Positions 9,625 through 59,371 of a DNA stretch of 64,000 bases are shown piece by piece. Each line of letters starts with the position of its first letter. Position 1 is the stretch's first letter. The notes beneath the pieces are model-generated. The model was given only the letters and a program-made list of their open reading frames with translations. It was not told the DNA's origin and ran no database searches. The stretch is from Rhodovulum bhavnagarense (lineage in GTDB: Bacteria; Pseudomonadota; Alphaproteobacteria; Rhodobacterales; Rhodobacteraceae): NCBI RefSeq assembly GCF_004343505.1, contig NZ_SLXU01000001.1, positions 186,001 through 250,000 of the forward strand, written 5' to 3'. The translations under genes were made by a program, and so were the position numbers.

Positions 9625-9696
9625 CCGGGATATTTGACCCAAAGCATTTGACGCAGGAATGCCTCGAGGCCCTGCTTTGGTCGAAATATCCCCGCC
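9625..9696. repeat. Inverted pair of the dispersed GGRTATTT element
   Basis: Two copies of the dispersed intergenic element face each other. The plus copy is at 9627-9644 (GGGATATTTGACCCAAAG); the minus copy is at 9671-9693 (read on minus: GGGGATATTTCGACCAAAGC). Together they form an imperfect 22-base stem with a 27-base loop between the convergent DUF4389 and pepF genes, suited to a bidirectional terminator. Confidence 0.65.
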
Positions 9697-9745
9697 GGAG
9701 GCTTCCACGCGGCGCCCTCGATGGGCGGTCGCGTGGAAGTTCGTC

Positions 9746-11569
9746 TCAGGCCTCCATCGCCTCAAGCTCGTCGATCATGCCTTCGATCATCGACAGCCCC
9801 TTGCCCCAGAAGGCCGGGTCACTGGCATCCAGCCCGAAAGGCGCCAGAAGATCCTTGTGGTGCTTGGAGCCGCCGGCCTTGAGCATGTCGAAATACTTGT
9901 CCTGGAAATCCGCGCCGCTTTCCTCGTAGACGGCGTAAAGCGCGTTCACGAGGCCATCGCCGAAAGCATAGGCATAGACGTAGAAGGGCGAGTGGACGAA
10001 ATGCGGGATGTAGGCCCAGAAGGTTTCATAGCCCTCCATGAACTCGAAGACCGGGCCGAGGCTTTCGCCCTGCACGCTCATCCAGATGTCGTTGATGTCC
10101 TCGGGGGTCAGTTCGCCGCCGCGCCGCGCCTCGTGCAGCTTGCACTCGAAGTCGTAGAAAGCGATCTGTCGGACGACCGTGTTGATCATGTCCTCGACCT
10201 TGCCTGCCAGCAGGGTCTTTTTCTGCGCCGATGTTTCGGCGCCCGCCAAAAGCTTGCGGAAGGTCAGCATCTCGCCGAAGACGGAGGCTGTCTCGGCCAG
10301 GGTCAGCGGGGTTGAGGACAGGAGTTCGCCCTGGCCGGCGGCCAGTACCTGGTGAACGCCATGGCCCAACTCATGGGCCAGCGTCATCACGTCCCGCGGT
10401 TTGCCCAGGTAGTTCAGCATCACGTAGGGGTGTACGTCCGTCACCGTGGGGTGGGCGAAGGCGCCGGGCGCCTTGCCGGGCTTCACGCCCGCGTCGATCC
10501 AGCCCTTGCCGAAGAACGGTTCGGCGATCTCGGCCATTTTCGGCGAGAAATCGGCATATGCGTCCAGAACCGTCGTCTTCGCCGCCTCCCAGTCCACGGT
10601 TTTCGGCTCTTCGATGGGCAGGGGGGCGTTTCGGTCCCAGACCTGAAGTTTCTCCAGCCCCATCCATTTGGCCTTGAGCGCGTAATAGCGATGCGAGAGG
10701 CGCGGATAGGCGGTGACGACCGCGTTGCGCAAGGCCTCGACCACCTCGGGTTCGACATGGTTGGCCAGGTGCCGCCCGGTCTGCGGGGTGGGCATTTTGC
10801 GCCAGCGGTCCTCGATTTCCTTTTCCTTGGCCAGCGTGTTGTGGACGCGGGCGAAGGTCTTGATGTTGGCGCCGAAGACGCTGGCCAGTTCGCGGGCGGC
10901 GGCCTCGCGCTTCGCACGGTCGGTGTCGGTCAGGAAGTTCAGCGTGCCCTCGATGTTGTAGGCCTCGCCCTCCACCTCGAATTCCAGCCCGGCAATGGTT
11001 TCGTCGAAGAGCTTGTTCCAGGCGGATGCCCCCACGACGGACTGGTCGTGCAGGAACTTTTCCAATTCGTCCGACAACTGGTAGGGGCGCATCGCGCGCA
11101 GCCGGTCGAATACGGGTTTATAGCGAGCCAAATCGGTATTCGCGGCAAAGAGCGAATCCAGCCGTGCATCTTCGATCCGGTTGATTTCAAGCGTGAAAAA
11201 GACCAGCGGTGTGGTAAAGGCAGTGATCTTGTCCTGGCAGTCGGACAGGAACTTTGCGCGCTCTGCATCCATCGTGTTCTGGTAATAGCGCAACCCGGCA
11301 AAGGACATGATCCGTCCCGAGATCCGGTCGATCGCCTCGTAACGGTCGATGCAGGTCAGCCAGGCGTCGGCGTCCAGGTCGGCCAGCTTGCCCTCGTAAT
11401 CGGTGGCGAAGGCGGCGCATTCGGTTTCCAGCCAGCCCATGTCGCGGGCGATTTCGGGCGCGTCGGGGGCTGCGTAAAGATCGCCGAGATCCCATTCGGG
11501 CAGCCTGCCCAGATCGGCGCCTCCGCTGGCATTTGCGTCGTGGACGGGGGCGGGCGGGGTGATGCGCAT
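9746..11569 (-). CDS. pepF: M3 family oligoendopeptidase F
   Basis: A cytosolic zinc metallopeptidase that cleaves short peptides. The 607-aa length is normal for PepF. The zinc site HELGH is at residues 399-403 within MTLAHELGHGVHQVL, and the third ligand region is LAETASVFGEMLTF about 27 residues on. The C-terminal YAYAFGDGLVNALY segment is also typical of the family. The start ATG at 11569 has a GAGGTTTCCC leader. Transcription leads away from the convergent DUF4389 gene. Confidence 0.95.
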   Translation of the reverse strand: MRITPPAPVHDANASGGADLGRLPEWDLGDLYAAPDAPEIARDMGWLETECAAFATDYEGKLADLDADAWLTCIDRYEAIDRISGRIMSFAGLRYYQNTMDAERAKFLSDCQDKITAFTTPLVFFTLEINRIEDARLDSLFAANTDLARYKPVFDRLRAMRPYQLSDELEKFLHDQSVVGASAWNKLFDETIAGLEFEVEGEAYNIEGTLNFLTDTDRAKREAAARELASVFGANIKTFARVHNTLAKEKEIEDRWRKMPTPQTGRHLANHVEPEVVEALRNAVVTAYPRLSHRYYALKAKWMGLEKLQVWDRNAPLPIEEPKTVDWEAAKTTVLDAYADFSPKMAEIAEPFFGKGWIDAGVKPGKAPGAFAHPTVTDVHPYVMLNYLGKPRDVMTLAHELGHGVHQVLAAGQGELLSSTPLTLAETASVFGEMLTFRKLLAGAETSAQKKTLLAGKVEDMINTVVRQIAFYDFECKLHEARRGGELTPEDINDIWMSVQGESLGPVFEFMEGYETFWAYIPHFVHSPFYVYAYAFGDGLVNALYAVYEESGADFQDKYFDMLKAGGSKHHKDLLAPFGLDASDPAFWGKGLSMIEGMIDELEAMEA

Positions 11570-11716
11570 GGGAAACCTCTTTGTTGTGTTTGCACTAGAG
11601 ATAGAGTGCCGGGGTAGGGACCTTCAAGGGACATGGGGCCGGTCGTGCCGCATGGACAGCGGGCCCGGCTGTCTCTAGGACGGCCACTGACATTCCAAGC
11701 CGTCCGAGGATTTCCG

Positions 11717-12232
11717 ATGACAACCTGTTCGCTGTGCGGCGCCGAGGGCGCGTCCGATTACACCGTGGCCCCGCGCGAGGACGTGATCGCGCTTTGCGAC
11801 ATCTGCCGTACCGCTGCGCAGGCGGGGCCGCAGGATGGCCCGCATTGGCAATGCCTGCACGAAGCGGTCTGGAGCGAAATTCCCGCCGTGCAGGTCGTGG
11901 CCTATCGTCTGCTCAAGGCGCTGGATACTGCGCCCTGGGCGCATGAGCTTCTGGATATCGCCTATCTCGACCCTGAACTGCTGGCCTGGGCCGAGGCCGG
12001 CCTGTCGGGCCAGCCCGAGATCATCCATCGTGACAGCAACGGGGCGGTTCTTGCATCGGGTGACACGGTGACGCTGATCAAGGATTTGCCGGTCAAGGGA
12101 GCGGGCTTTACCGCCAAGCGTGGCACGGCGGTGCGCAACATCTCGTTGGTGCAAGACAATCCCGGCCAGATCGAGGGCCGCGTCGAAGGCCAGCGTATCG
12201 TCATCCTGACCGAATTCGTTAAGAGGTCGTGA
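11717..12232 (+). CDS. PhnA domain protein (YjdM-like)
   Basis: A 171-aa protein. It begins with a zinc-ribbon MTTCSLCGAEG (CxxC), has a second CDIC pair around residue 30, and ends with the PhnA C-terminal SH3-like domain (SGDTVTLIKDLPVKGAG, then RGTAVRNISL and EGQRIVILTEFVKR). Despite the name, proteins of this family are not shown to degrade phosphonates. The start at 11717 has GAGGA six bases upstream; an in-frame ATG 28 codons earlier lacks one. It diverges from pepF and converges on the lipase gene. Confidence 0.9.
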   Translation: MTTCSLCGAEGASDYTVAPREDVIALCDICRTAAQAGPQDGPHWQCLHEAVWSEIPAVQVVAYRLLKALDTAPWAHELLDIAYLDPELLAWAEAGLSGQPEIIHRDSNGAVLASGDTVTLIKDLPVKGAGFTAKRGTAVRNISLVQDNPGQIEGRVEGQRIVILTEFVKRS

Positions 12233-12296
12233 ACGCCGCGCGGGCGGACTCGTCGAGGCCTTCGCCCATGTGCGGGATGCCATGGCGCGCGGGGGC

Positions 12297-13250
12297 TCAG
12301 GCCGGGGCGGGCTGGCTGGAATGGGTGCGGAAATGCGCAGCGGTCATGTCGAAGACGCGGCTGCGGATTGCCGGCCGTTCCATCATCACCTCGTGACGCG
12401 CGCCCTCGATGAGTTCCAGCCGGCCGCCTGGCCATCCGGCCATCCGGTCGCGAATCGCCTCGGGGCAGACGATCCTCTCGTCGGTGCCGAGCCATGTCAG
12501 CGCAGGGCAGGCGGGGGCGGGCAGGCGTGCCAGGTCGCGCAATTCGCGAAGCGCCTCGTGCAGCCAGGTCAGGCTGGGGCCGTTCAGCACCAGTTCGGGA
12601 TGTTCGATCAACTGGTGGCGCATGTAGGCGAACATCTCGGGGTCGCTGGTCAGGTCGTTATCCTCGAACGCGTTTTGCAACACGAAGCCATCGCCGGCCT
12701 TGCCCGGGGTGAAACAACCGCCCAGCCCCAGCGGGCGGCTTGCGGCGCTGACCAGCCAGGCCGCTGGGCGAAGCAGTGGCGGCATCAGGATGCCCCACAT
12801 CGGCGCGGTAAAGACGGCGGCGGCGACATCCAGCCCGCGCATTAATGCGCGCAGCCCGATCGCCCCGCCCATCGAATGCCCTAACAGGAAAAACGGTCTG
12901 GGCAGATCCAACGCCAGCGCGGCGGTGTAAACGGCGTCAAGGTCGCGCTGATAGGCGTCAAAGCGTTCGACATGTCCTACCCGCGGATGGTCGTGCAGTC
13001 GGTCGGCCAGACCCTGACCGCGCCAGTCCACCGCCAATGTCGCCAAACCGCGCGCCCGAAAATCGACCGCGGCTCGGCCGTATTTCTCGGCATATTCGGT
13101 GCGTCCGCAGGCGAGCAGGACCGTACCACCGGGCGCATCCCGACCCCAGGCGGCGATCCGCAATCGCACGCCGTCCGAGGCCCTCAGCCAACGTGCAAAC
13201 CCGTCCGACGGGCCGCAGGCGACATCCGAGAACAGCGGCGCAGGGCCCAC
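12297..13250 (-). CDS. Alpha/beta hydrolase (lysophospholipase/monoacylglycerol lipase type)
   Basis: The 317-aa protein has the nucleophile elbow GHSMGG (in FFLLGHSMGGAIGLRALM), an early strand TVLLACGRTEYAEKYG and DWRGQGLADR, the usual oxyanion/aspartate layout of the PldB/monoglyceride lipase group. The catalytic histidine is likely in GARHEVMMERP near the end and the acid in TWLGTDERIV. It follows the SCP2 gene by 11 bases, so both are probably one transcript: a lipid-binding protein and a lipid hydrolase. Confidence 0.85.
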   Translation of the reverse strand: MGPAPLFSDVACGPSDGFARWLRASDGVRLRIAAWGRDAPGGTVLLACGRTEYAEKYGRAAVDFRARGLATLAVDWRGQGLADRLHDHPRVGHVERFDAYQRDLDAVYTAALALDLPRPFFLLGHSMGGAIGLRALMRGLDVAAAVFTAPMWGILMPPLLRPAAWLVSAASRPLGLGGCFTPGKAGDGFVLQNAFEDNDLTSDPEMFAYMRHQLIEHPELVLNGPSLTWLHEALRELRDLARLPAPACPALTWLGTDERIVCPEAIRDRMAGWPGGRLELIEGARHEVMMERPAIRSRVFDMTAAHFRTHSSQPAPA

Positions 13251-13261
13251 CGTTTGGACGC

Positions 13262-13549
13262 TCAGGTAAAGATCTGGGCCAGCTTCATCGCCATGCCCAT
13301 ATCGCCATCGATCCTGAGCTTGCCGGTCATGAAGGCCGCGGTGGGGTTCATGTCGCCCTCAAGCATGGCACGAAAGGTGTCAAGCGTGGCGCTGAGGGTT
13401 ACGTCGGCATCCGCCTCGCCAAGCCGTGCGCCTTGCGAATCGATAACGATGGCGCCCTCGTCCTCGATGTCGAACTTTGCCACCCCCTCGATGCCGCCGT
13501 CGATTTTCTCGCGCAGCACCTCAAGCGCCTTTTCCAGGGTCTCGCTCAT
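13262..13549 (-). CDS. SCP2 sterol-binding domain protein
   Basis: A 95-aa single-domain protein of the SCP2 family: MSETLEKALEVLREKIDGGI at the start, then KFDIEDEGAIVIDS, LSATLDTFRAMLEGDMNPTA and AFMTGKLRIDGDMGMAMKLA. The last two blocks are the classical SCP2 lipid-tunnel signature. Such proteins bind sterols or fatty acyl chains. The start at 13549 has GGAGGAA seven bases upstream; longer in-frame starts run into the promoter region shared with the divergent TPR gene. It is the first gene of a two-gene operon with the hydrolase. Confidence 0.9.
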   Translation of the reverse strand: MSETLEKALEVLREKIDGGIEGVAKFDIEDEGAIVIDSQGARLGEADADVTLSATLDTFRAMLEGDMNPTAAFMTGKLRIDGDMGMAMKLAQIFT

Positions 13550-13619
13550 TACTATTCCTCCGAAATGTGATCGCGGGGCTGTCGCCGGCCCCGCGAAACG
13601 CGCTAATGTCCCACTTGTT

Positions 13620-14180: not shown

Positions 14181-14202
14181 GGCGTGGGCGAAAGGGCAGC
14201 GA

Positions 14203-17010: not shown

Positions 17011-17013
17011 CGC

Positions 17014-17403: not shown

Positions 17404-17475
17404 GCATCCCGCCGCTTGAATGATCGAACGCCCTGTTTTAGCTAGGGGCCCACACGAAAGAACGAGAGTCCGCAC

Positions 17476-17814: not shown

Positions 17815-18090
17815 GGGCGATTCGCCCTTCTCGCCCCCCGTTTGCCCCTGTTGGTGCGGGAAATAGGTTTTACCTTCAGGGGGTTGCCCCTGCCTAAGCG
17901 GTGCGGTGCTTTCCTTTGGTGGGCATTTCTGTTATCAATCCGTCAGATATGGCCGACCGAAACCTGACCGCATCGCGGGGCTGCTCGCTTGTGGTGCGAA
18001 ATTTCAGTGCCCGAGACACCACATGACCGGAAAGCCCGTTTCCGGCAGGTGCCTCTCGCTCTGCCAGGGGTCCCTGCGAGGAAGAACTGA

Positions 18091-19442: not shown

Positions 19443-20093
19443 ATGGACTGGATGCGCCCGATCGATGCCTATTGCGAACGCAGCGACCCATCTTTCTGGG
19501 CCGAGCCGGTCAATGCCTTGACAAATGCCGCGTTCCTGGTGGCAGCCGCGGTGATGTGGCCGCGCGTGGCCGGGATGCCTATGGCGCGCGCGCTTTGCGT
19601 GGTGCTGGGGCTGATCGGTATCGGCAGCTTCCTGTTTCACAGCCTGGCCAACGCTGTGGCGGGGTTGGCCGATGTGCTGCCGATTCTGGGTTTCATCCTG
19701 CTTTACCTGTACGTGGCGCATCGGCGCTTCTGGGGGTTGGGGCGCTGGTCCGCGCTGACCTTGAGCGCGGCCTTTCTGCCCTATGCGGCGGTGCTTGCGC
19801 CGCTCTTCGGGATGTTGCCCGGCTTGGGCAGCTCGGCCGGATATGCGCCGGTTGCCCTGTTGATCGGGATCCATGCCCTCTTGCTGCGCGGTCGGGCGCC
19901 TGCCACCGCCGCGGGGCTGGGCCTGGGGGCGGGCGTGCTGAGTGTCTCGATTGTCTTTCGCAGCCTGGACGAGCCGCTTTGCGCCGCGATCCCGTTGGGC
20001 ACACATTTCCTGTGGCATGTCCTGAATGCGATCATGCTTGCCTGGGTGATCGAGGTTTACCGCCGACACGAAACCGCGTGCGCCCAATCCTGA
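19443..20093 (+). CDS. Ceramidase-like integral membrane protein
   Basis: A 216-aa protein with about seven membrane helices. The start MDWMRPIDAYCERSDPSFWA and EPVNALTNAAFLVAAA match the alkaline ceramidase domain (YCE..DPSFWAEPVNALTN), whose E and the later GIGSFLFHSLAN and THFLWHVLNA histidines form the zinc site of the CREST superfamily. The motif residues appear present, so hydrolysis of a ceramide-like or other amide-linked lipid is possible. Sphingolipid substrates in this organism are not shown. Ribosome binding site AAGGAG lies 13 bases upstream, a long spacing. Confidence 0.85.
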   Translation: MDWMRPIDAYCERSDPSFWAEPVNALTNAAFLVAAAVMWPRVAGMPMARALCVVLGLIGIGSFLFHSLANAVAGLADVLPILGFILLYLYVAHRRFWGLGRWSALTLSAAFLPYAAVLAPLFGMLPGLGSSAGYAPVALLIGIHALLLRGRAPATAAGLGLGAGVLSVSIVFRSLDEPLCAAIPLGTHFLWHVLNAIMLAWVIEVYRRHETACAQS

Positions 20094-20123: not shown

Positions 20124-20145
20124 GGGTATTTTTCCCAAGAAGAAG
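20124..20145 (+). repeat. Dispersed intergenic element copy
   Basis: GGGTATTTTTCCCAAGAAGA plus AG; copy of the element also at 26017, 36924, 52634 and 59350. It sits between the convergent ceramidase-like and purU genes. Confidence 0.7.
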
Positions 20146-20205: not shown

Positions 20206-21066
20206 TCAGCCCGGCATGAACACCACGGTCTTGTGTCCGTTCGGCAGAACCCGGCGTTGCAGGTGGAGCCGCACGGCACGGGCCAGAACGCGGCTTTCGA
20301 TGTCGCGGCCGACCGCAACGTAGTCATCGGCGGATAGCGCGTGGTTCACGCGTTCGGTTTCCTGTTCGATGATCGGGCCTTCGTCGAGATCGGCGGTCAC
20401 GTAATGCGCAGTGGCGCCGATCAGCTTTACCCCCCGTTCATAAGCCTGGTGATAAGGCTTGGCCCCCTTGAAGGAGGGCAGGAACGAATGGTGGATGTTG
20501 ATCACCCGGCCCGCGAGCGCGCGGCTGAGGTCATCGGAAAGCACCTGCATGTAGCGCGCCAGAACCACCAGTTCGGCGCCCGTTTCTTCGACCAGCGCCT
20601 TGAGCCTGGCCTCTTGCTCGGGCTTGTTCTGTGTTGTCACGGGCCAATGGTGATAGGGGATGGCGTTGGCCTCGGCGGTGGGGCGGCTATCATCGTGGTT
20701 GGAAACGATCGCCACGACCTCGGCCTGCATCCAGCCCACGCGGATCTGGTAGAGAAGGTGCAGCAGGGCATGGTCGAACTTTGAAACCATCAGGATGATC
20801 CGGGGCCGCCGGTCGGCACTGACGACTTCGGCGGTCATGTCATAGCCGTTGATCACCGGGGCAAGGCGGGTGCGCAGTTCTTCGGCCTCCGCCGGGGTTT
20901 CGGTATCGAAAGCCACGCGCATGAAGAACCGCCCGGTTTCGGTGTCGCGGAACTGAGAGCTTTCGCGGATGTTGCCACCCAGCGCGGTGATCGCGTTCGA
21001 GACGGTGGCCACGATTCCGCGCTGGTCTGCGCAGGTCAGCGTCAGGATGAAATCTGTCGAGGTCAT
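20206..21066 (-). CDS. purU: Formyltetrahydrofolate deformylase
   Basis: Hydrolyses 10-formyltetrahydrofolate to tetrahydrofolate and formate, supplying formate and balancing one-carbon pools. The 286-aa protein has an N-terminal ACT domain (FILTLTCADQRGIVATVSNA) and a C-terminal formyltransferase-like domain. Catalytic asparagine and histidine lie in GRVINIHHSFLPSFKG and the aspartate in TADLDEGPIIEQ. The length is standard. It points away from gatC, and its 3' end carries the dispersed element. Confidence 0.95.
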   Translation of the reverse strand: MTSTDFILTLTCADQRGIVATVSNAITALGGNIRESSQFRDTETGRFFMRVAFDTETPAEAEELRTRLAPVINGYDMTAEVVSADRRPRIILMVSKFDHALLHLLYQIRVGWMQAEVVAIVSNHDDSRPTAEANAIPYHHWPVTTQNKPEQEARLKALVEETGAELVVLARYMQVLSDDLSRALAGRVINIHHSFLPSFKGAKPYHQAYERGVKLIGATAHYVTADLDEGPIIEQETERVNHALSADDYVAVGRDIESRVLARAVRLHLQRRVLPNGHKTVVFMPG

Positions 21067-24445: not shown

Positions 24446-24817
24446 GCGCGGATGGCCGGATGGCCGCGGGCGGTCACGTCCGAGGAAAGTCCGGACTCCA
24501 CGGAGCAACGGTGCCGGGTAACGCCCGGCGGGGGCAACCCCAGGGAAAGCGCCACAGAGAACAGACCGCCCCTGTGCGCAGGGGTAAGGGTGAAACGGTG
24601 GGGTAAGAGCCCACCGCGGGACTGGTAACAGGACCGGCACGGCAAGCCCCACCGGGAGCAATGCCGAATAGGGACCCCGCGCGGGCAATCCGCAGGGCGG
24701 CTTCGGCCCAGGGGTCCGGGTTGGCAGCTAGACGTGCATCGGTAACGGTGCGCCTAGAGGAATGGTCATCCAGGGGCGTAAGCCCCGGACAGAATCCGGC
24801 TTACAGGCCGTCCGCGC
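24446..24817 (+). ncRNA. rnpB: RNase P RNA
   Basis: Catalytic RNA that matures tRNA 5' ends. The universal core is present: GAGGAAAGTCCGGACTCC near the 5' end, ACAGAGAACAGACCGCC and GGTAAGGGTGAAACGGTGGG in the middle, and ACAGAATCCGGCTTACAG near the 3' end. Helix P1 is formed by GCGCGGATGG (24446-24455) and CCGTCCGCGC (24808-24817). The size and helices fit the bacterial A type of alphaproteobacteria. Confidence 0.97.
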
Positions 24818-24916
24818 GCGACATCCCGAACCTTGGGGGCTGTGCCAAGCCAGGCTAGGCTGGTCCTTGGTGGGCGAGCCTGCCCGCAACCGCGCCAGGA
24901 AGAGAGGGAAGACGCG

Positions 24917-26016: not shown

Positions 26017-26038
26017 GGGTATTGGGACCAAGAAGAAG
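26017..26038 (+). repeat. Dispersed intergenic element copy
   Basis: GGGTATTGGGACCAAGAAGA followed by AGG, preceded by GCCTCCGGCAG as in the minus copy at 9671-9702. It lies between convergent rpmG and the Bax1-like gene. Confidence 0.75.
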
Positions 26039-26106: not shown

Positions 26107-26853
26107 TTACTCGCGGTTGCCGAGAAACTGCAGCAGGAACATGAAGAGGTTGATGAAGTCGAGATAGAGGTTGAGCGCCCCCATGATCGCCGATTTCGCC
26201 AGCCATTCGCCGTCCATGGCATGAGCATGCTGGATGTAATCGGTCTTGATCCTCTGGGTGTCATAGGCGGTCAGCCCGGCAAAGATCAGAACGCCGATGA
26301 TCGAGATGGCGAACATCACCGCCGGAGAGGCAAGGAAGATGTTCACGATCGAGGCGACGACCAGGCCGATCACACCCATGATAAGGAACGAGCCCCAGCC
26401 CGAGATGTCCTTTTTCGTGGTGTAGCCCCACAGCGACAGCCCGGCAAAGGCGATCGCGGTGATCAGGAAGGTCTGAACGATCGACACGCCCGTGAACACC
26501 AGGAAGATCGAGCTGAGCGACAACCCCATCAGCGTGGCGAAGCCGTAGAAATAGACCTGCGCCGCAGCGGCGGAGAGGCGGTTGACCACCGCACCGAAGG
26601 CAAAGACCATGATCAGCGGGGCGAACATGATCAGCCATTTCAGCGGCGAGGCATAGATCGCCTGGCCCAGGGCCGAAAGCGTGCCATCGGGTGTTACTGC
26701 CAGGCCCGAGATCGCCCAGGCCGCAAGACCGGTGATCAGCATGCCCACGGACATGGTGCCGTAGACCTTGTTCATGTGGGCGCGAAGCCCCTCGTCAATC
26801 TGCGCGGTGCGGACACCAGCCTGACCGGCGCGGATCGTGTTGTAGTCAGCCAT
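26107..26853 (-). CDS. Bax inhibitor-1/YccA family membrane protein
   Basis: A 248-aa protein with seven hydrophobic helices of the BI-1 (TMBIM/YccA) family. Visible blocks include MNKVYGTMSVGMLITGLAAW, GLSLSSIFLVFTG, FAGLTAYDTQRIKTDYIQHA (the conserved D of the family pore) and ALNLYLDFINLFMFLLQFLG. The family forms pH-sensitive calcium leak channels in some bacteria or protects FtsH substrates (YccA). The start MADYNTIRAG at 26853 has AAGGAGG seven bases upstream. The gene has its own terminator (26051-26081). Confidence 0.93.
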   Translation of the reverse strand: MADYNTIRAGQAGVRTAQIDEGLRAHMNKVYGTMSVGMLITGLAAWAISGLAVTPDGTLSALGQAIYASPLKWLIMFAPLIMVFAFGAVVNRLSAAAAQVYFYGFATLMGLSLSSIFLVFTGVSIVQTFLITAIAFAGLSLWGYTTKKDISGWGSFLIMGVIGLVVASIVNIFLASPAVMFAISIIGVLIFAGLTAYDTQRIKTDYIQHAHAMDGEWLAKSAIMGALNLYLDFINLFMFLLQFLGNRE

Positions 26854-35100: not shown

Positions 35101-36879
35101 ATGATCTCATTGCCCCTTTCGGAAACCGGCATGGCGATCATGTCGCTTGTTGTCGTGGCCGTGATGTTCGTCCTCTTCGTGCGCGAACGTTACCCTGCCG
35201 AGGTGATCGCGCTGTCGGGGGCGACGGTGATGCTGGTGCTCGGCATCTTGCCCTATGAGCGGGCGCTTGAGGTTCTGTCCAACCCCGCTCCGTGGACCAT
35301 CGCGGCGATGTTCTTGGTCATGGGGGCATTGGTGCGCACCGGCGCGCTGGATTGGGTGACGCAGGCGGCAGAGCGCAATGTGCGCCGCAGCCCCCGCCGG
35401 GCGATCGCGGGATTGATGGCCTTTGTCATCGGCGCCTCGGCGGTGGTGTCGAACACGCCCGTCGTGGTGGTGATGATCCCTGTTTTCGTGCAATTGTCGC
35501 GCAGCCTCGGGGTTTCGGCCTCCAAGCTTCTGATCCCGCTGAGCTACGGGGCGATTCTTGGCGGGACGCTGACGCTGATCGGCACCTCGACCAACCTTCT
35601 GGTCGACGGGGTGGCGCGCGCCTACGGGCTGGCGCCTTTTACCATCTTCGAGGTCACGCCCCTGGCGGTGATCCTCGTGGCCTGGGGAATGATCTACCTG
35701 CGCCTGTTCGGCCCGCGCCTGTTACCCGACCGCGACAGCATGGCGAACCTGTTATCCGACAAGTCCAAGATGAAATTCTTTACCGAGGCGGTGATCCCGC
35801 CCGACAGCAACCTCATCGGTCGGGAGGTTCTGGGCGTGCAACTGTTCAAGCGCGAGGGCGTGCGCCTGATCGACGTGATCCGGGGCAATGAATCGCTGCG
35901 CCGCGACCTTGCAGGGGTCACGCTCCAGGTTGGCGATCGGGTTGTCCTGCGTACCCAGATGACCGAGTTGCTGTCGTTGCAACGCGACAAGAGCTTGCGA
36001 CGCGTCGACCAGGTCTCGGCGGTTGAAACCTCGACGGTCGAGGTGCTGATCTCGCCGGGCTGCAAGATGATCGGCCAGACGCTGGGCACGCTTCGCCTGC
36101 GCCGCAGATATGGCGTCTACACGCTGGCCGCGCATCGGCGTAACCAGAATATCGGGCAAAAGCTGGACGATCTCGTCGTGCGGGTGGGCGACACGTTGTT
36201 GCTGGAGGGGGCGCCGGCCGATATCAAGCGTCTGGCCGCGGATATGGGCCTGGTCGATATCTCGCAGCCCTCGGGCCGGGCCTACCGGCGCAAGCACGCG
36301 CCGATCGCGATCGTAGCGCTGTTCGGGATCGTGGCTCTGGCCGCGCTGGGCGTGGCACCGATCCTGATGCTGGCGGTTCTCGCGGTGGCCTTGGTTCTGT
36401 TGACGCGCTGCGTGGATGCTGAAGAGGCATTTTCCTTTGTCGACGGACGGCTGCTGGCACTGATCTTTTCGATGCTGACGGTGGGGGCGGCGCTGGAAGC
36501 CTCGGGCGCGGTGCGGCTGATCGTTGATGCGGCCGCGCCCGCGCTGGACGGTTTGCCGCCGTTTTTCATCGTCTGGGCGATCTACCTGCTGACCTCGGTC
36601 TTGACCGAGCTGGTGTCGAACAACGCGGTGGCCGTGGTCGTTACGCCTGTGGCCATCGGGCTGGCCCAGGCCCTGGGGGTCGATCCCAGGCCGCTGGTGG
36701 TGGCGGTGATGGTGGCGGCCTCGGCCAGTTTCGCAACGCCGATCGGCTATCAGACCAACATGATGGTCTATGGGCCGGGCGGTTATCGTTTTGTCGATTT
36801 CATGCGTGTGGGCATCCCGTTGAACCTGAGCGTCGGGATTCTGGCCTCGGCGCTCATCCCGCTTTTCTGGCCGCTGTGA
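35101..36879 (+). CDS. SLC13-family permease with two TrkA-C domains
   Basis: A 592-aa transporter of the DASS/ArsB-like fold. Membrane helices occupy about 1-205 and 400-592; between them sit two RCK_C (TrkA-C) domains (about 215-300 and 305-390). Family motifs are VVSNTPVVVVMIPVFVQLSR, GGTLTLIGTSTNLLVDGVAR and, near the end, VSNNAVAVVVTPVAIGLAQA with ASFATPIGYQTNMMVYGPGG. Substrate could be a dicarboxylate, sulfate or a metal oxyanion; it cannot be told from sequence. A second, different member lies tail to tail at 36958-38739. Confidence 0.9.
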   Translation: MISLPLSETGMAIMSLVVVAVMFVLFVRERYPAEVIALSGATVMLVLGILPYERALEVLSNPAPWTIAAMFLVMGALVRTGALDWVTQAAERNVRRSPRRAIAGLMAFVIGASAVVSNTPVVVVMIPVFVQLSRSLGVSASKLLIPLSYGAILGGTLTLIGTSTNLLVDGVARAYGLAPFTIFEVTPLAVILVAWGMIYLRLFGPRLLPDRDSMANLLSDKSKMKFFTEAVIPPDSNLIGREVLGVQLFKREGVRLIDVIRGNESLRRDLAGVTLQVGDRVVLRTQMTELLSLQRDKSLRRVDQVSAVETSTVEVLISPGCKMIGQTLGTLRLRRRYGVYTLAAHRRNQNIGQKLDDLVVRVGDTLLLEGAPADIKRLAADMGLVDISQPSGRAYRRKHAPIAIVALFGIVALAALGVAPILMLAVLAVALVLLTRCVDAEEAFSFVDGRLLALIFSMLTVGAALEASGAVRLIVDAAAPALDGLPPFFIVWAIYLLTSVLTELVSNNAVAVVVTPVAIGLAQALGVDPRPLVVAVMVAASASFATPIGYQTNMMVYGPGGYRFVDFMRVGIPLNLSVGILASALIPLFWPL

Positions 36880-36923
36880 AGCGCCTCTTACCGGTGCCGG
36901 ACCGTAGGGCGAGGCCGGGATCT

Positions 36924-36945
36924 GGGTATTTGGGCCAAGAAGAAG
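36924..36945 (+). repeat. Dispersed intergenic element copy
   Basis: GGGTATTTGGGCCAAGAAGA followed by AG, between the two convergent SLC13 permease genes. Confidence 0.75.
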
Positions 36946-36957
36946 CGCAGGGCCGGT

Positions 36958-38739
36958 TTACAAGGGCCAGAAGACCAGGATAGCGGGCACCGAGACCGCG
37001 ACGACCAGGAGTTCGAGCGGCAGCCCCATGCGCCAGTAATCGCCGAAACGATATCCGCCGGGCCCCAGGATCAGGGTGTTGTTCTTGTGGCCGATGGGCG
37101 TGAGAAAGGCACAGGAGGCCGCGACCGCCACCGCCATGAGGAAGGGATCGGGATCGACGCCGAGGCCTTGGGCCATCTGGATGCCGACCGGGGCGGCGAC
37201 CACGGTGGTGGCGGTGTTGTTGAGCACGTCCGACAGCGTCATCGTCACCACCATAAGCACCGTCAGGATCGCCCATGCGGGCCAGCCCGCGGTGAGTGCG
37301 ACGAGGCTGTTGGCGATCAGTTGCGTCCCGCCCGAGGCATCCAGCGCGGTGCCAAGCGGGATCATCGAGCCCAACAGGACCACAACCGGCCATTCCACAT
37401 GGTCATAGACCTCGGAGAGCGGCAGGATGCGGAATGCCATATACCCCACCACCACCAGCCCGAGTGCAATCGGCAGGTAGACGATACCGAGACTGGCCGC
37501 CGCCACCGCGGCCACAAACAGGCCCACCGCGATCCAAGTCTTGCGCGTATCGGTCACGGCCAGGCCGCGATCGGCAAGTGTCAGGCAGCCCAGCCAGTCG
37601 ACCACGTCATGCGCCGTATCCTCTGGTGTCAGCAACAAGAGGATATCGCCCGGGCGGATGCGGGTTTTGCGAATCTGCTGGCGGATCGGTCTGCCCTTGC
37701 GGGATATGCCCAGTAGTACCGTGCGTTGGCGCCAGGCCAGCCCGATGGATTGCGCAGTCTTTCCGGTAATGCGCGACTGGTCGGGCACGACCACCTCGAC
37801 GATGGACAGGCCGGCCGCCTCGGCGCGCAGTTTCTCTGCGCCCTCGCGATCGACGAAATCGAGTGACATCGCGTTGCGGAACTCGTCCAGCGCGTCGGGC
37901 GTGGCCTCTATGACCAGCGCATCGCCCGCCCTGAGCGGCGTCGCCCGTTGTGGCCCGTAGCGGCGTTTGCCGTCTCGTACCAGGCCCAGGATCGCGACAT
38001 CGTCCTTTTCGGCCTGATCGTCGAGGTCGCCCAGCCTCTGGCCGATCAGCCTGGACTCCGCCGGCACGGTCAGTTCGGCGATATACTGCGCGAATTCCGC
38101 CATCGGGTCCTTGGCATGGGTGATGTGTTCGCCTCGCGGGATCAGCCGCCAGCCGATCAGCGCCACGAAGACCAGCCCGGCCAGGGCTGCCGCCCCGCCC
38201 ACCGGGGCGAAGTCGAACATCTTGAACGGGGCGCCCAGGCTGTCCTCGCGGATGCCGGAAATGATGATGTTGGGCGGCGTGCCGATCAGCGTGACCATGC
38301 CGCCCAGGATCGTGGCAAAGGCCAGCGGCATCAGGGACAGGCCCGGTGCGCGCCCCGCCTTGCGCGCGGTGGCGATGTCCACCGGCATCAGCAGCGCCAG
38401 TGCCGCCACGTTGTTCATGAAGGCCGACAGGACCCCGCCGATCCCCCCCATGATCGCGATATGGCTGCCCAGGCCCCGGGCGCTGTCCACCAGCGTGCGG
38501 GTGATCAGGTAGACCGCGCCGGACCGCACCAGCCCCGCCGACACGATCAGCACCAGTGCCACCACCAGCGTGGCCGGGTGCCCGAAGCCGGCGAACGCGT
38601 CGGCCGCCGGCAACACGCCCAGCACGACGGCCACCAGAAGCGCGGTAAAGGCCACCAGGTCATAGCGCCACCGGCCCCACAGCAGTGCGGCAAAGACGGC
38701 GCCGAACAGCGCGAACAGGATGATCTGGTCGTGGGTCAT
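36958..38739 (-). CDS. SLC13-family permease with two TrkA-C domains (second copy)
   Basis: A 593-aa protein with the same plan as its neighbour: helices, two central TrkA-C domains (about 210-385), helices. Motifs are SAFMNNVAALALLMPVDIAT, GGMVTLIGTPPNIIISGIRE and, at the end, LSDVLNNTATTVVAAPVGIQ with CAFLTPIGHKNNTLILGPGG. Sequence differs widely from the first copy, so this is an old paralogue pair, not a recent duplication. The start MTHDQIILFA at 38739 has GGGAGG seven bases upstream; a longer in-frame start runs into the divergent yebC gene. Substrate is unknown. Confidence 0.9.
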   Translation of the reverse strand: MTHDQIILFALFGAVFAALLWGRWRYDLVAFTALLVAVVLGVLPAADAFAGFGHPATLVVALVLIVSAGLVRSGAVYLITRTLVDSARGLGSHIAIMGGIGGVLSAFMNNVAALALLMPVDIATARKAGRAPGLSLMPLAFATILGGMVTLIGTPPNIIISGIREDSLGAPFKMFDFAPVGGAAALAGLVFVALIGWRLIPRGEHITHAKDPMAEFAQYIAELTVPAESRLIGQRLGDLDDQAEKDDVAILGLVRDGKRRYGPQRATPLRAGDALVIEATPDALDEFRNAMSLDFVDREGAEKLRAEAAGLSIVEVVVPDQSRITGKTAQSIGLAWRQRTVLLGISRKGRPIRQQIRKTRIRPGDILLLLTPEDTAHDVVDWLGCLTLADRGLAVTDTRKTWIAVGLFVAAVAAASLGIVYLPIALGLVVVGYMAFRILPLSEVYDHVEWPVVVLLGSMIPLGTALDASGGTQLIANSLVALTAGWPAWAILTVLMVVTMTLSDVLNNTATTVVAAPVGIQMAQGLGVDPDPFLMAVAVAASCAFLTPIGHKNNTLILGPGGYRFGDYWRMGLPLELLVVAVSVPAILVFWPL

Positions 38740-50440: not shown

Positions 50441-52573
<2,133 letters not shown>

Positions 52574-52633
52574 CAGGCAGCGTCGGTCACCGCCCTTGCC
52601 CGCGCGGCGCGCGGGCACCGGGCGGTGCGCCAT

Positions 52634-52655
52634 GGGTATTGGGGCCAAGAAGAAG
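52634..52655 (+). repeat. Dispersed intergenic element copy
   Basis: GGGTATTGGGGCCAAGAAGA followed by AG, between convergent scpA and ygfZ. Confidence 0.75.
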
Positions 52656-52709
52656 GGCCGCGGCGTGCCTGGGCCTTCGGCATGGAGACGGATGAGTGCC
52701 GGGGCGGTC

Positions 52710-53468
52710 TCAGGCGGGATCGAGGTGCAGCACCGCATCGCCCGCCTGCATCGGTCCGCTTGCCCTGTCAAAGCGCAGGTAGGCAAGCGCCCGGCCGTCG
52801 GATTGGGTAAACAGGGTGCCGGCCGGTTTGCCCTGTGCCATGATCGCGGTGCCGACCGGGGCGGCACCTTCGATCCTGACGGTCGCCAGGCCCTTTTTCA
52901 GGTCGGTCTTGTGTTTCATCCGGGCGGTGACCTCTTGGCCGACATAGCAGCCCTTGTGAAAATCGACGCCGTTGAGCCGTTCGAATCCGGCCTCAAGGAT
53001 GTAGGTTTCGCCTGGGATCAGTTCGATCCCCGTCTCGGGGATGCCATGGGTCACGCGCAGGCCATCCCAGTCGGTGGTTTCGGGGCCCGCGGCGGCGATG
53101 CGGTAAGCGCGCCAGCCCAGTGCCGGCGCGCGCGGGTCGGCGAGGGCATCGGCAGGCGCGGGGCCAAGGCCGCGGATCACGTGCAGGCCGGTTCGTGCGA
53201 TTTCGACTGCCGAGCGCAGCCTGTACATTGACAGGCGTCGGGCCAGATCCTCGGCCAGGCAGGTTTTCACGTCCAGCAGGAGCGCGTCCGCGATTGCCGT
53301 GACGAAGAAATCGGCGATGTATTTTCCCTGCGGTGTCAGCAACGCGGCATAGACCAGCCGTCCGTCGAGGTCGCGCATGTCATTGCTGACCAGCCCTTGC
53401 AGGAAATGCACCCGATCCTCGCCGGTGATGCGGAACACGGTGCGGTCGGTGGCGGTTTCGCCCTGCAT
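52710..53468 (-). CDS. ygfZ: Folate-binding Fe-S cluster assembly protein YgfZ
   Basis: A 252-aa GcvT-like folate-binding protein needed for iron-sulfur and MiaB-type enzymes. The diagnostic motif KGCYVGQEVTARMKHKT (in FHKGCYVGQE) holds the conserved cysteine; FLQGLVSNDM and TPQGKYIADFFV are also typical. The start MQGETATDRT at 53468 is chosen because GGAGG lies five bases upstream; two earlier in-frame ATGs lack one. It lies just downstream of the ABC exporter gene, 60 bp apart, in the same direction. Confidence 0.92.
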   Translation of the reverse strand: MQGETATDRTVFRITGEDRVHFLQGLVSNDMRDLDGRLVYAALLTPQGKYIADFFVTAIADALLLDVKTCLAEDLARRLSMYRLRSAVEIARTGLHVIRGLGPAPADALADPRAPALGWRAYRIAAAGPETTDWDGLRVTHGIPETGIELIPGETYILEAGFERLNGVDFHKGCYVGQEVTARMKHKTDLKKGLATVRIEGAAPVGTAIMAQGKPAGTLFTQSDGRALAYLRFDRASGPMQAGDAVLHLDPA

Positions 53469-53528
53469 GTCGCCCTCCATATCGGTTTCGCTGTCGCGGC
53501 CCGGCCCTTTTGCAGATCGGGCCACCGC

Positions 53529-55334: not shown

Positions 55335-55488
55335 GAGCTGGGCCGGGTTCGGGACGCGCCATCGGGGACGCCTGAACCCGATAGCCCGAAAGCCGCGCCC
55401 GGCGCAAGTATTCGGCCAGCCGGGCCGATTGACGGGCCAGTCGGGCGGGCCTAACAGGTTGGTGTCTCGCCCATCCCCGGAGAACGAC

Positions 55489-56688: not shown

Positions 56689-56708
56689 GGCGTTTTGCAA
56701 CTGCAAGG

Positions 56709-56742
56709 GCCGCACCCTCTGGATGCGGCCCTGAACGCAGTC
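56709..56742 (+). terminator. Hairpin between convergent genes
   Basis: AGGGCCGCA (near 56707-56715) pairs with TGCGGCCCT (near 56724-56732) in the gap between the aminotransferase and DUF6858-like genes. No strong T-run follows, so it may be Rho-assisted. Confidence 0.5.
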
Positions 56743-56757
56743 GGTCGGCGGGGAGTA

Positions 56758-57150
56758 TCAGGCCTTGTCGACCAGGTCGCGGCACCAGGTTTCCATTTCC
56801 CTGGTGGCCACTTCCATCGGCGGTTCCATGAACGAGATATGGAAGCGATCGCCCAGGTCGGCCACCCCGATAGAACGCGGGCGCACGGCCAGGACATGGG
56901 CATTGGGCAGGGCCACGCCAAAACAGAACACGATATTGCGCGCGTCCTTGATATCCTCGGCGATGGTGCCGTCGATGCTCTTGGTGTGGCTGTAATGGTC
57001 GAATGTGGCGATGTAGGCCACCTTGGGATGGGCGTCGATCCGCGCCTTCAGGCGATCGAGGATGTCGTCCACGCTGGTGCAGGTGGTTTCAGACTTGTCC
57101 AGGTCCAGGTCGAAGACCGGGTATTTCTCCATCAGAAGGGTCTGTCTCAT
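56758..57150 (-). CDS. Small conserved protein (DUF6858-like)
   Basis: A 130-aa soluble protein: MRQTLLMEKYPVFDLDLDKS, then TSVDDILDRLKARIDAHPKV, AYIATFDHYSHTKSIDG and FCFGVALPNAHVLAVRPRSI. I believe this is the DUF6858 family of alphaproteobacteria, of unknown function. It has conserved histidines and cysteines (FDHYSHT, VFCFG) that could bind metal. Gap 57151-57359 downstream of hisC contains only a possible 43-codon frame. Confidence 0.78.
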   Translation of the reverse strand: MRQTLLMEKYPVFDLDLDKSETTCTSVDDILDRLKARIDAHPKVAYIATFDHYSHTKSIDGTIAEDIKDARNIVFCFGVALPNAHVLAVRPRSIGVADLGDRFHISFMEPPMEVATREMETWCRDLVDKA

Positions 57151-57217
57151 GTCATGTCCTGACTTTTGGTGGGTCGACAGGCGGGCTTGGCCACCCTCGG
57201 GCCATTACTTGCATCTT

Positions 57218-57349
57218 TTAGTCAGGTTTTGCGATGGGGGATCGGCCTCCATCACGGGGATGTGAGGGCGTTTCCACCGCCCGCTTCGACCGGGCCGGCA
57301 CCTGCCAAAAGATCCCCCGCTCGCGGAAACAGGCGCGCGGGTCCGACAT
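57218..57349 (-). CDS. Possible 43-aa peptide downstream of the aminotransferase
   Basis: An ATG at 57349, 10 bases after the hisC-like stop with GAGG nearby, opens 43 codons: MSDPRACFRERGIFWQVPAR at the start. The first half has GC-rich third positions like real genes, the second half does not. It could be a small coupled gene or the remnant of a longer one. No family resemblance. Confidence 0.25.
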   Translation of the reverse strand: MSDPRACFRERGIFWQVPARSKRAVETPSHPRDGGRSPIAKPD

Positions 57350-57359
57350 CACGCGTGCC

Positions 57360-58466
57360 TCATCCGCGTGCCGCGGCCAGAGCCTTGGGCAGTTCCTCTT
57401 CGAGAACGTCGAGCTGGTCCTCGGGGCCTGCCGAAACGCGAATGCAGCGGTCGAGCGTTGCCACCCCCGGCATCCGCACGAACACGTCCAACTCTGCCAA
57501 TTCGCGCAATACACGGCGGGCGAATTCGCCATCTGCGTGGCAATCCACAGCCACGAAATTGGTGGCCGATGGCAGCGCGCTCAGCGCGTTGTCAGAGGCG
57601 ATGCGCGCGATCCGGGCGCGGGCATCTGCGACCTGCGCGCAGACTTCGGCCAGCCAGGCCTTGTCCTGCAACGAGGCAAGCGCACCGGCCTGGCTGATCC
57701 GGCACATGCCGAAATGATTACGCACCTTGTCGAAGGCCGCGATCAGCGGCGGCGCCCCGATCGCATAGCCCACCCGCGCGCCGGCCAGCCCGTGCGCCTT
57801 GGAAAAGGTGCGAAAGCGGATCACGCGCGGATCGTCAGCGTCGATCGGGGGCGCGGTGCCCTCGGGGGCGAACTCGATATAGGCCTCGTCCAGGATCATC
57901 AGCGTGCCCTCGGGGACCGCCTCGATCATTGCCCGGATCTTCTCGGCGCCGTGCCAACTTCCCATCGGGTTGTCGGGATTGGCCAGGTAGACAAGCTTTG
58001 CCCCCACCTCGGCCGCCTTGTCCAGCAGGGCCTGTCCATCCTCGTGATCGCCTGCGTAAGGAACCTTGTGCAGCACGCCCCCAAAGCCCGTGACATGGTA
58101 GTTGAAGGTCGGATAGGCACCCGCCGAGGTCACCACGGGGTCGCCCGGCGCCACCACCATGCGCACGAGATAGCCCAAAAGGCCGTCGATCCCTTCGCCC
58201 ACCATGATGTTTTCCGGCGTCACGCCCAGATCGGCGGCGAGCGCCGCACGCAAATCGTGGTTCTGGGCATCGCCATATTTCCAGACCTCCCGGGCGGCCC
58301 GCGTCATCGCTGCCAGCGCCAGGGGCGAGGGTCCGAACAGGCTTTCATTCGCGCCCAGGCGCGCGCGAAACGGCCGGCCGCGGGTGCGTTCCTGTGTTTC
58401 AGGGCCGACAAAGGGCACGGTGGCGGGCAAGCTGGCGACAAGCGGGGTATAGCGAGGTCCGGTCAT
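57360..58466 (-). CDS. hisC: Histidinol-phosphate aminotransferase-like PLP enzyme
   Basis: A 368-aa class I/II aminotransferase. RARLGANESLFGPSPLALAA (N/E substrate and PLP loop), LVYLANPDNPMGSWHG (NPDNP), LMILDEAYIEFAPEG (D/Y) and the PLP lysine FSKAHGLAGARVGYAIG match the HisC family. Its phosphate loop residue pattern could also suit aromatic or other substrates, so the HisC function is not certain. It is divergent from the alpha/beta hydrolase, and a 17-bp tandem repeat lies in the gap. Confidence 0.8.
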   Translation of the reverse strand: MTGPRYTPLVASLPATVPFVGPETQERTRGRPFRARLGANESLFGPSPLALAAMTRAAREVWKYGDAQNHDLRAALAADLGVTPENIMVGEGIDGLLGYLVRMVVAPGDPVVTSAGAYPTFNYHVTGFGGVLHKVPYAGDHEDGQALLDKAAEVGAKLVYLANPDNPMGSWHGAEKIRAMIEAVPEGTLMILDEAYIEFAPEGTAPPIDADDPRVIRFRTFSKAHGLAGARVGYAIGAPPLIAAFDKVRNHFGMCRISQAGALASLQDKAWLAEVCAQVADARARIARIASDNALSALPSATNFVAVDCHADGEFARRVLRELAELDVFVRMPGVATLDRCIRVSAGPEDQLDVLEEELPKALAAARG

Positions 58467-58508
58467 GGATCAGAGATGACCTCGAATCGTGCCGCTCCGC
58501 AAGGCCGC

Positions 58509-58542
58509 GTCTTGCGGTCGGGCAGGTCTTGCGGTCGGGCAG
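58509..58542. repeat. 17-bp tandem direct repeat
   Basis: GTCTTGCGGTCGGGCAG occurs twice head to tail (58509-58525, 58526-58542) in the gap between hisC and the alpha/beta hydrolase. Confidence 0.75.
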
Positions 58543-58585
58543 GGGCCTGCCTACCCTTGCGCGCAACACCGCAAAGGAGTCCGAC

Positions 58586-59335
58586 ATGACAGCACCAGCC
58601 TATCTCGATACGCCCTCGGGCCGCAGGCTGGCCTATCACCGCTTGCCGGGCAAGGGGCCGGGCGTGGTGTTCCTGGGCGGGTTCATGTCCGACATGGAGG
58701 GCACCAAGGCCCGGCACCTCGAAACCTGGGCTCGCGGCTGCGGCCGTTCCTTCCTGCGCTTTGACTATTCCGGGCATGGCCAAAGTTCGGGCGCGTTTGC
58801 CGACGGGTGCATCGGTGACTGGGCGCAGGATGCCGGGGCCGCGCTGAGCGCGCTGACCGAGGGGCCGCAAGTCTTGGTGGGGTCATCCATGGGGGGCTGG
58901 ATCGCGCTCTTGCTGGCGCGCGCGCTGCCCGAGCGGGTGGTTGGCATGGTGGGCATCGCCGCCGCCCCCGATTTCACAGAGGACAGCATGTGGGCGGGCT
59001 TCGCGCGGGATCAGCGCGCCGCGCTTATGGCCGACGGCCGGATCGAGATACCCTCGGGCTATGCCGACAGCCCCTACACGATTACCCGTCGCCTGATCGA
59101 GGAGGGCCGCGAAAATCTCGTGCTGCGCGATCCCTTGCGGCTGCCTTTCCCGGTTCGGTTGTTGCAGGGCACGGCAGACGAGGATGTCGAGATGACCACC
59201 GCCCTGCGCCTGCTGGCGCATATCGACTGCGCGGATGCGCGGCTGACCTTGGTCAAGGGCGCCGATCACCGGTTTTCCGAGCCTGCCGACCTGGCCCTGG
59301 TCGAGCAGGCGATCACGGAGATCCTGCCAGACTGA
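58586..59335 (+). CDS. Alpha/beta hydrolase (ABHD10-like)
   Basis: A 249-aa esterase-fold protein. The nucleophile elbow is GSSMGG (VLVGSSMGGWIALLLARALP), the oxyanion region GVVFLGGFMSDMEGTKA, an aspartate in LQGTADEDVEM and a terminal histidine in GADHRFSEPAD. These are the triad of the ABHD10/palmitoyl-esterase-like group; the natural ester is unknown. AAAGGAGT precedes the ATG. It converges on phaZ with a copy of the dispersed element between. Confidence 0.88.
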   Translation: MTAPAYLDTPSGRRLAYHRLPGKGPGVVFLGGFMSDMEGTKARHLETWARGCGRSFLRFDYSGHGQSSGAFADGCIGDWAQDAGAALSALTEGPQVLVGSSMGGWIALLLARALPERVVGMVGIAAAPDFTEDSMWAGFARDQRAALMADGRIEIPSGYADSPYTITRRLIEEGRENLVLRDPLRLPFPVRLLQGTADEDVEMTTALRLLAHIDCADARLTLVKGADHRFSEPADLALVEQAITEILPD

Positions 59336-59349
59336 GACCGGTCCGCCTT

Positions 59350-59371
59350 CTTCTTCTTGGTGCAAATACCC
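59350..59371 (-). repeat. Dispersed intergenic element copy (minus)
   Basis: On the minus strand GGGTATTTGCACCAAGAAGA followed by AG; between the convergent hydrolase and phaZ genes. Confidence 0.75.

What the first reader, a model, noticed from the sequence alone, without database searches (positions are those of the whole stretch)
9627..59371. Dispersed intergenic element found only between convergent genes
A conserved word, core GGGTATTTGGRCCAAGAAGA, occurs at 20124, 26017, 36924, 52634 (plus) and 59350 (minus), with degenerate copies at 9627 and 9671. Some have GCCTCCGGC upstream. Every copy in this window lies in the gap between two genes that converge, never in divergent or tandem gaps. 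The word has weak dyad symmetry (TTGGNCCAA) but is not a simple hairpin. I know no named repeat with this sequence. It may be a termination, 3' processing, or RNA-stability signal.
Basis: partly seen in the sequence, partly recalled or inferred. Interest (0 to 1): 0.75.

Follow-up and report, generated by a model that had tools for sequence, protein, structure and literature searches.

The report
Gene-end DNA word with dialects
A 22-letter two-part DNA word sits past the ends of genes, most often where two genes run into each other, in marine and purple bacteria of one family; its spelling differs between relatives and has shifted in place at several sites in one species, which suggests that an unknown cell factor reads it.

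Summary
The word is real and far beyond chance. In this Rhodovulum genome it reads GGGTATTT, three free bases (mostly KNR), CCAAGAAGAAG: 112 copies with up to 3 mismatches. All five window copies lie between convergent genes, but 'never tandem or divergent' fails: in the 0.75 Mb examined it occurs in 20 of 56 convergent, 15 of 221 tandem and 3 of 105 divergent gaps of 60 nt or more. It is polar: 51 of 116 start 25-44 nt past the stop codon of the gene on their strand, and 32 of 102 end within 14 nt of the opposing stop. Relatives carry other spellings with the same inner spacing; matches outside the family were at chance level. Between two close species, all 8 words found in one 400 kb stretch have a partner at the same place in the other species, and 6 of the 8 differ at one and the same letter. 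This fits a trans-acting reader. The word is not simply an intrinsic terminator and does not meet the tests for RAYT-type REPs or uptake sequences. 17 of 47 sites share copied flanks, so it also spreads as cassettes. Best guess: binding site of an unknown DNA-binding protein acting as a polar fence at gene ends; a selfish repeat is the chief rival.

The parts
20124..20145 (+). main-form word GGGTATTT-TTC-CCAAGAAGAAG; gap between a ceramidase-domain gene (19443-20093 +) and a formyl-transferase/ACT-domain gene (20206-21066 -)
   Evidence: Pfam
26017..26038 (+). main-form word (GGGTATTG variant) preceded by a hairpin and GCCTCCGGC; lies between what look, by eye, like ordinary terminators of the ribosomal L33 gene (25731-25898 +) and the Bax1-I gene (26107-26853 -)
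   Evidence: Pfam
36924..36945 (+). main-form word, no mismatch; gap between two convergent CitMHS/TrkA-C transporter genes (35101-36879 +, 36958-38739 -)
   Evidence: Pfam
52634..52655 (+). main-form word; gap between methylmalonyl-CoA mutase (50441-52573 +) and a CAF17/GCV_T-domain gene (52710-53480 -)
   Evidence: Pfam
59350..59371 (-). main-form word on the minus strand, sense to the PHB depolymerase gene (59412-60680 -), facing the alpha/beta hydrolase gene (58586-59335 +)
   Evidence: Pfam
9627..9646 (+). second-form word GGGATATTT-GAC-CCAAAGCA, plus arm of an inverted pair, convergent gap 9576-9745
9673..9692 (-). second-form word GGGATATTT-CGA-CCAAAGCA, minus arm of the same pair; span CCAAAGCA..TGCTTTGG 42 nt

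Best explanation
The word is a short, polar, two-part recognition site (GGGTATTT, three free bases, CCAAGAAGAAG) for an unidentified sequence-specific factor, most likely a DNA-binding protein that contacts two neighbouring major grooves. It is placed behind stop codons, often 25-44 nt behind, and often close to the opposing stop codon, singly or as tail-to-tail pairs. I infer that the bound factor acts as a polar fence: it stops or releases RNA polymerase that has run past a gene's end before it enters the facing gene. Copies spread through the genome with flanking hairpin cassettes and are then kept. As the factor's preference drifts, kept sites change spelling in place, which gives each lineage its dialect. 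Shown by computation: copy number, placement, polarity, near-fixed inner spacing, dialects, positional conservation in one species pair, a shared in-place change. Inferred: existence of the factor, that it binds DNA, and the fence function.
For: (1) 66 + 46 genomic copies with up to 3 mismatches, reversed control 0. (2) Convergent versus tandem gaps of 60 nt or more: 20 of 56 versus 15 of 221, p = 2e-7; versus divergent 3 of 105, p = 4e-8. Words in 104 stretches of other genomes: 46 convergent, 31 tandem-sense, 10 tandem-antisense, 1 divergent, 3 genic, 20 at locus edges, of 111. (3) Polarity: of 116 words 51 start 25-44 nt past the sense stop, none at 20-24; 32 of 102 end within 14 nt of the opposing stop. 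(4) Inner spacing near-fixed: exactly 3 bases in 52 of 54 matches in G296 although 2-7 were allowed, while neighbouring letters differ by genome. (5) Species pair G301/G307: 8 of 8 words of the G301 stretch have an orthologous word in G307; 5 differences at 144 other fixed positions but 6 of 8 at position 14, some in sites with flanks 57-77% identical. Genome-wide TATTTN3CCAGGAAG: 21 in G301, 1 in G307, 0 in G000, 0-4 in the other 13. (6) Tail-to-tail pairs (72, by right halves, spans 18-48 allowed): none under 29; in G000, G295 and G298 18 of 35 span 30-33 and 15 of 35 span 39-44, about one helical turn apart.
Against: No factor was identified. With word arms masked, 17 of 47 sites share flank similarity with a distant word site (0-2 of 47 in five control samples), so copying explains part of the dispersal. 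The two window gaps compared across 16 Rhodovulum genomes hold an intact word only in G000; behind the mutase gene G298 has a degenerate copy and the G295 contig ends there. Antisense placement in tandem gaps is common: 7 of 16 in G000, 10 of 41 in the loci. 54 of 116 words lie 45 nt or more behind the sense stop. The second spacing mode rests on three genomes; the other 37 pairs are 25 at 29-34, 6 at 35-38, 4 at 39-44, 2 at 46-47, and species share ancestry. Position 14 was picked after seeing the data. The TM1040 copy lies between rfbB and rfbD in tandem, awkward for a strong terminator. The fence function has no direct evidence.
Confidence: 0.38

Rival explanations
1. A selfish or semi-selfish short interspersed repeat (REP-like in behaviour) copied by an unknown transposase or recombinase that recognises the word; gaps between convergent genes merely tolerate it best.
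For: Shared flanks at 17 of 47 sites versus 0-2 of 47 controls; two window gaps where only G000 of 16 species has an intact word; inverted pairs; two spellings coexist in G000 and G295 while G297 shows only the second of the spellings searched, 9 matches; exact-form copy numbers 0-101 within one genus.
Against: No Y1_Tnp (REP-associated transposase domain) in five genomes with many words (G295, G298, G305, G020, G086); the one hit, in G000, has no word in its 3.4 kb locus. The centre varies between copies. Words are kept 8 of 8 in the G301/G307 comparison and change spelling in place.
Confidence: 0.28
2. An RNA-level 3'-end signal: RNase E cuts at GU-AUUU and Hfq or a small RNA binds AAGAAGAAG; the word sets mRNA 3' ends or stability.
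For: Polar position behind stop codons; tandem copies more often sense than antisense in the loci, 31 versus 10 (in G000 9 versus 7); AU-rich RNase E sites in R. sphaeroides (passages of PMC6238624). The fit of (AAG)3 to the Hfq ARN motif and of GUAUU to the RNase E consensus RNWUU is recalled.
Against: General factors would not readily explain a shared letter change in one species. Antisense copies are frequent. GG/CC pairing within the word is not compensated in the dialect genomes. The centres of many listed pairs are not complementary (by eye).
Confidence: 0.2
3. Ordinary intrinsic terminators whose U-tract happens to be conserved.
For: Some sites have a strong GC hairpin just upstream (GGGGGCGCTGCCCCC or GCCTCCGGC cassettes). 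The 45 nt before the word fold better than shuffled in 90 of 127 sites. In G000 alone canonical terminators are fewer at word-bearing sense ends, 1 of 30 versus 45 of 359, as if replaced, but convergent sense versus no word gives p = 0.30.
Against: Intervals of the commonest kind (class 1) are no more structured than other gene ends (p = 0.29; all 63 intervals together p = 0.04). In the larger set canonical terminators are 10 of 120 at word-bearing ends versus 112 of 1084. U-run terminators need no fixed CCAAGAAGAAG and no dialects.
Confidence: 0.09
4. A DNA uptake sequence with dialects, as in Neisseriaceae.
For: Dialects, inverted pairs at gene ends, matches outside the family at chance level.
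Against: About 1 copy per 28 kb and 1 genic of 44 in 748 kb, unlike the hundreds to thousands of copies given for uptake sequences in the abstract of PMC2346458 (seen in the listing).
Confidence: 0.05

Closest known systems
REP/BIME elements with RAYT transposases (Enterobacteria, Pseudomonas; description recalled)
   Same: Intergenic, at 3' ends, sometimes in inverted pairs, more than one spelling within a genome
   Different: The single word is not palindromic, its centre varies, and five word-rich genomes lack the Y1_Tnp domain
Neisserial DNA uptake sequences and their dialects (PMC3630211, start of abstract seen in the listing)
   Same: Short word, dialects between relatives, inverted pairs at gene ends (the last recalled for Neisseria)
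   Different: Copy number far lower, longer word, nearly absent from genes
Roadblock termination by DNA-bound proteins, e.g. yeast Reb1p (passages of PMC10310618)
   Same: Works-like comparison: a bound protein that blocks RNA polymerase
   Different: The passages name bacterial roadblocks such as CcpA, CodY, Fis and Tus but none dedicated to gene ends; no factor identified here
Rho-independent terminators
   Same: Gene-end position; some copies follow GC hairpins
   Different: Hairpin not required, no U-run, strict downstream half CCAAGAAGAAG

Membership tests
REP/RAYT system | Y1_Tnp (RAYT) transposase in the genome | tested here: not met
   PF01797 in 1 of 10 genomes (G000); absent from G295, G298, G305, G020, G086, which carry many words
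REP/RAYT system | Each element is itself a palindrome/hairpin | tested here: not met
   Perfect second arm within 70 nt downstream at 6 of 40 G000 sites, the other 34 at the level of the upstream control
REP/RAYT system | Extragenic, multi-copy, often paired | tested here: met
Intrinsic terminator | GC hairpin directly before a U-run | tested here: not met
   Hairpin optional: 47 class-1 intervals not different from 200 controls (p = 0.29); tail is TATTT plus three varied bases, no U-run
Intrinsic terminator | Transcripts end there | not testable with these tools
   No 3'-end data held
DNA uptake sequence | Very high copy number, also inside genes | tested here: not met
   112 copies in 3.15 Mb; 1 genic of 44 with up to 3 mismatches in 748 kb
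DNA uptake sequence | Enhances uptake of DNA | not testable with these tools
   needs a transformation assay
Rfam RNA family | Match to a curated covariance model | tested here: not met
   Only RNase P, a tRNA and 6S in the window at gathering threshold
Small open reading frame (ATG GGT ATT ... AAG AAG AAG) | Open frame through the word in all copies | tested here: not met
   Centres GAA and GAG (13 of 127) put TGA in that frame; many copies lack the ATG

The most novel reading that the evidence does not exclude
Rhodobacterales possess a dedicated, rapidly evolving DNA-binding factor that marks gene ends as polar transcription fences, with lineage-specific spellings that shift in place at kept sites: a bacterial counterpart of roadblock termination with dialects.
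Probability: 0.28. Interest if true: 0.88.

Novelty: new variant of a known kind. Interest (0 to 1): 0.63.

Why it matters
By my strict scan only about 10% of gene ends without the word carry a canonical hairpin plus T-run terminator (112 of 1084), so how transcripts end in these GC-rich genomes is open. A polar gene-end word with dialects gives a concrete handle: the factor that reads it can be fished out with the word itself, and the spelling shift between two close species lets one test recognition and coevolution. If the word proves selfish instead, it is a short repeat family without the usual transposase and with strong site preference.

Tried and rejected
Rejected: RNA hairpin between GGG and CC of the word (the dialect genomes change these letters without compensation). 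Small peptide reading (stops in frame). REP/RAYT membership. Decayed second arms beside single words (none above the upstream control). Replacement of canonical terminators (suggested by G000 alone; not borne out in the larger set). General hairpin requirement. My early reading that G297 had lost the system was wrong: it carries the second spelling. Of 14 viral contigs with a match, four GC-rich ones (L339, L341, L343, L346) look by eye like Rhodobacterales DNA and the other ten, GC 0.31-0.54, look like chance or shared coding matches. Phage records: no match to a 33-base query at E up to 1. De novo word search in 100-200 kb of five other family genomes showed further spellings in G304, G001 and G036 but nothing clear in G003 or G297; G003 has 46 genome-wide matches to the loose pattern and none in the 100 kb I held. 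Literature: seven searches by names or concepts and two by sequence strings showed no description of this word; most were capped listings of the open-licence PMC subset. First count of shared flanks, 23 of 47, included second arms of pairs; masked, it is 17 of 47.
Full report
Observation. The window holds five copies within three mismatches of the stated word; shuffles give none. The window is C1:186001-250000 of a 3.15 Mb genome in 51 contigs. Its genus is Rhodovulum: pair spacers of genus-mates G295, G298 and G300 recur in Rhodovulum records named and printed (L129, L074, L092). Genome-wide there are 66 + 46 copies with up to three mismatches and none of the reversed pattern.

The word. In 127 sites, whose fixed letters were imposed by the search patterns, the three centre bases are mostly K-N-R and conservation stops sharply at both edges. 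Searches with loose spacing show that the spacing is real: of matches to TATTTN{2,7}CCAAGAAG, exactly three bases lie between in 52 of 54 in G296 and 31 of 33 in G304.

Placement. I wrote a simple gene predictor, so gene calls are approximate. In 748 kb (24% of the genome) words with up to three mismatches are 24 convergent, 16 tandem (9 sense, 7 antisense), 3 divergent and 1 genic. By gaps of at least 60 nt: 20 of 56 convergent, 15 of 221 tandem, 3 of 105 divergent.

Polarity. Distance from the sense stop codon to the word: 11 of 116 at 4-19 nt, none at 20-24, 51 at 25-44, 54 at 45 or more. From the end of the word to the opposing stop codon: 32 of 102 at 0-14 nt.

Terminator test. Upstream contexts are a hairpin plus GCCTCCGGCGG, a GGGGGCGCTGCCCCC cassette, or neither. 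The 45 nt before the word fold better than shuffled in 90 of 127 sites; other gene ends also fold better than shuffled. Intervals between stop and word are slightly more structured than other gene ends overall (63 intervals, p = 0.04), not so for the commonest kind (47 intervals, p = 0.29). Canonical hairpin plus T-run terminators: 10 of 120 word-bearing ends and 112 of 1084 others; convergent sense ends alone 5 of 75 versus 47 of 346, p = 0.12. In the L33/Bax1-I gap of the window the word lies between sequences that look, by eye, like the genes' own terminators. Hence the word is not simply the terminator, though a small effect is not excluded.

Pairs. 72 tail-to-tail pairs of right halves occur in 10 of 16 Rhodovulum genomes (spans 18-48 allowed; left halves not required). 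Span CCAAGAAGA..TCTTCTTGG: 43 at 29-34, 7 at 35-38, 19 at 39-44, 3 at 46-47, none below 29. In G000, G295 and G298 there are two clear modes (18 at 30-33, 15 at 39-44, of 35); in the other seven genomes mostly one (25 of 37 at 29-34). Ten bases between modes suggests DNA-level geometry, with the caution that species share ancestry. Single words show no remnant of a second arm: 34 of 40 at control level.

Dialects. In the sites fetched, G128, G086, G011 and G073 read CAAAG, AAAAG, GCAAG and ACAAG, preceded before GTATTT by GA (8 of 8), GA (6 of 6), mixed letters (GA in 3 of 6) and CC (5 of 5). In Rhodovulum G296 and G304 the left half is GAGTATTT in 7 of 8 and 7 of 7 loci read. Plasmid stretches of Ruegeria, Paracoccus, Dinoroseobacter and Sagittula carry further spellings; the 28 plasmid records with a match are all of Rhodobacterales genera. 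Outside the family 3 of 187 class genomes have one match each, chance level. The exact main form is in 14 of 16 Rhodovulum genomes. G297 has none of it and 9 matches of a second spelling, TATTTN3CCAAAGCA, which has 12 matches in G000 and 5 in G295, at least one of the latter genic and probably chance; it is absent from the other 13.

In-place shift. In 400 kb each of G301 and G307 (90.6% identical over 326 kb) 8 of 8 words of G301 have a word at the orthologous place in G307; 2 of the 10 in G307 have none in G301. At position 14, 6 of 8 differ (G in G301, A in G307), against 5 of 144 at the other fixed positions (p = 5e-8, position chosen post hoc). Flanks of several of these sites are 57-77% identical. 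Genome-wide the G spelling counts 21 in G301, 1 in G307 and 0-4 in the other 14. I read this as coevolution with a reader of the word.

Spread. With word arms masked, 17 of 47 sites have a similar flank at a distant word site, against 0-2 of 47 in five control samples. Examples: 31 identical bases at C1:212016 and C2:274316; a 127-base stretch, 82% identical, around two second-form pairs. At deeper range sites turn over: of the two gaps compared in 16 Rhodovulum genomes, behind the mutase gene G000 has the word and G298 a degenerate one (the G295 contig ends there), behind Bax1-I only G000 has it.

Reading. Keeping, polarity, near-fixed spacing and a shared spelling change argue for a factor that binds the word; spread by cassettes argues for a repeat-like origin. 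The two are compatible. The fence function is inference from position only. No factor was found, and no expression data were available. On rechecking I lowered the best explanation slightly (0.40 to 0.38) because the pair-spacing evidence rests on three genomes and antisense tandem copies are frequent.

Literature. Passages of the R. sphaeroides RNase E and PNPase papers (PMC6238624, PMC7866481), of RepRanger (PMC12306157) and of a roadblock review (PMC10310618) were read; none of the passages describes this word.

Noticed in passing
window 4476-4632 (-), 5500-5573 (+), 24448-24819 (+): 6S RNA, a tRNA and RNase P class A RNA at gathering threshold.
   Followed up: no
window 9601-9702: Inverted pair of a second spelling with GGGGGCTCTGCCCCC and GCCTCCGGC cassettes on its two sides; a 127-base stretch, 82% identical, recurs at G000 C1:286182-286305.
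   Followed up: partly
window 35101-38739: Two convergent CitMHS/TrkA-C transporter genes, probably paralogues (66-base inverted repeat at 74%; Pfam), with a word between them.
   Followed up: no
L226 (G000 C30): A 142-codon Y1_Tnp gene, IS200/IS605-like by my reading, with no word-like match in its locus.
   Followed up: partly
L081: Record titled Enemella evansiae carries a Rhodobacterales-like word and cassette; probably contamination or mislabelling.
   Followed up: no
L348, Paracoccus versutus plasmid pBEN: Two direct tandem copies of a cassette ending CTCCGGCGGG-RGTATTTGGGGAACGAAGAAG.
   Followed up: no
L258 (G295 C10 end): Long poly-G run shortly after the mutase gene, probably an assembly artefact at a contig end.
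   Followed up: no
G295, G000, G298 pairs with span 40-44: Spacers of several long pairs contain a near-palindrome like CAAGGGCGCGCCCTTG.
   Followed up: no
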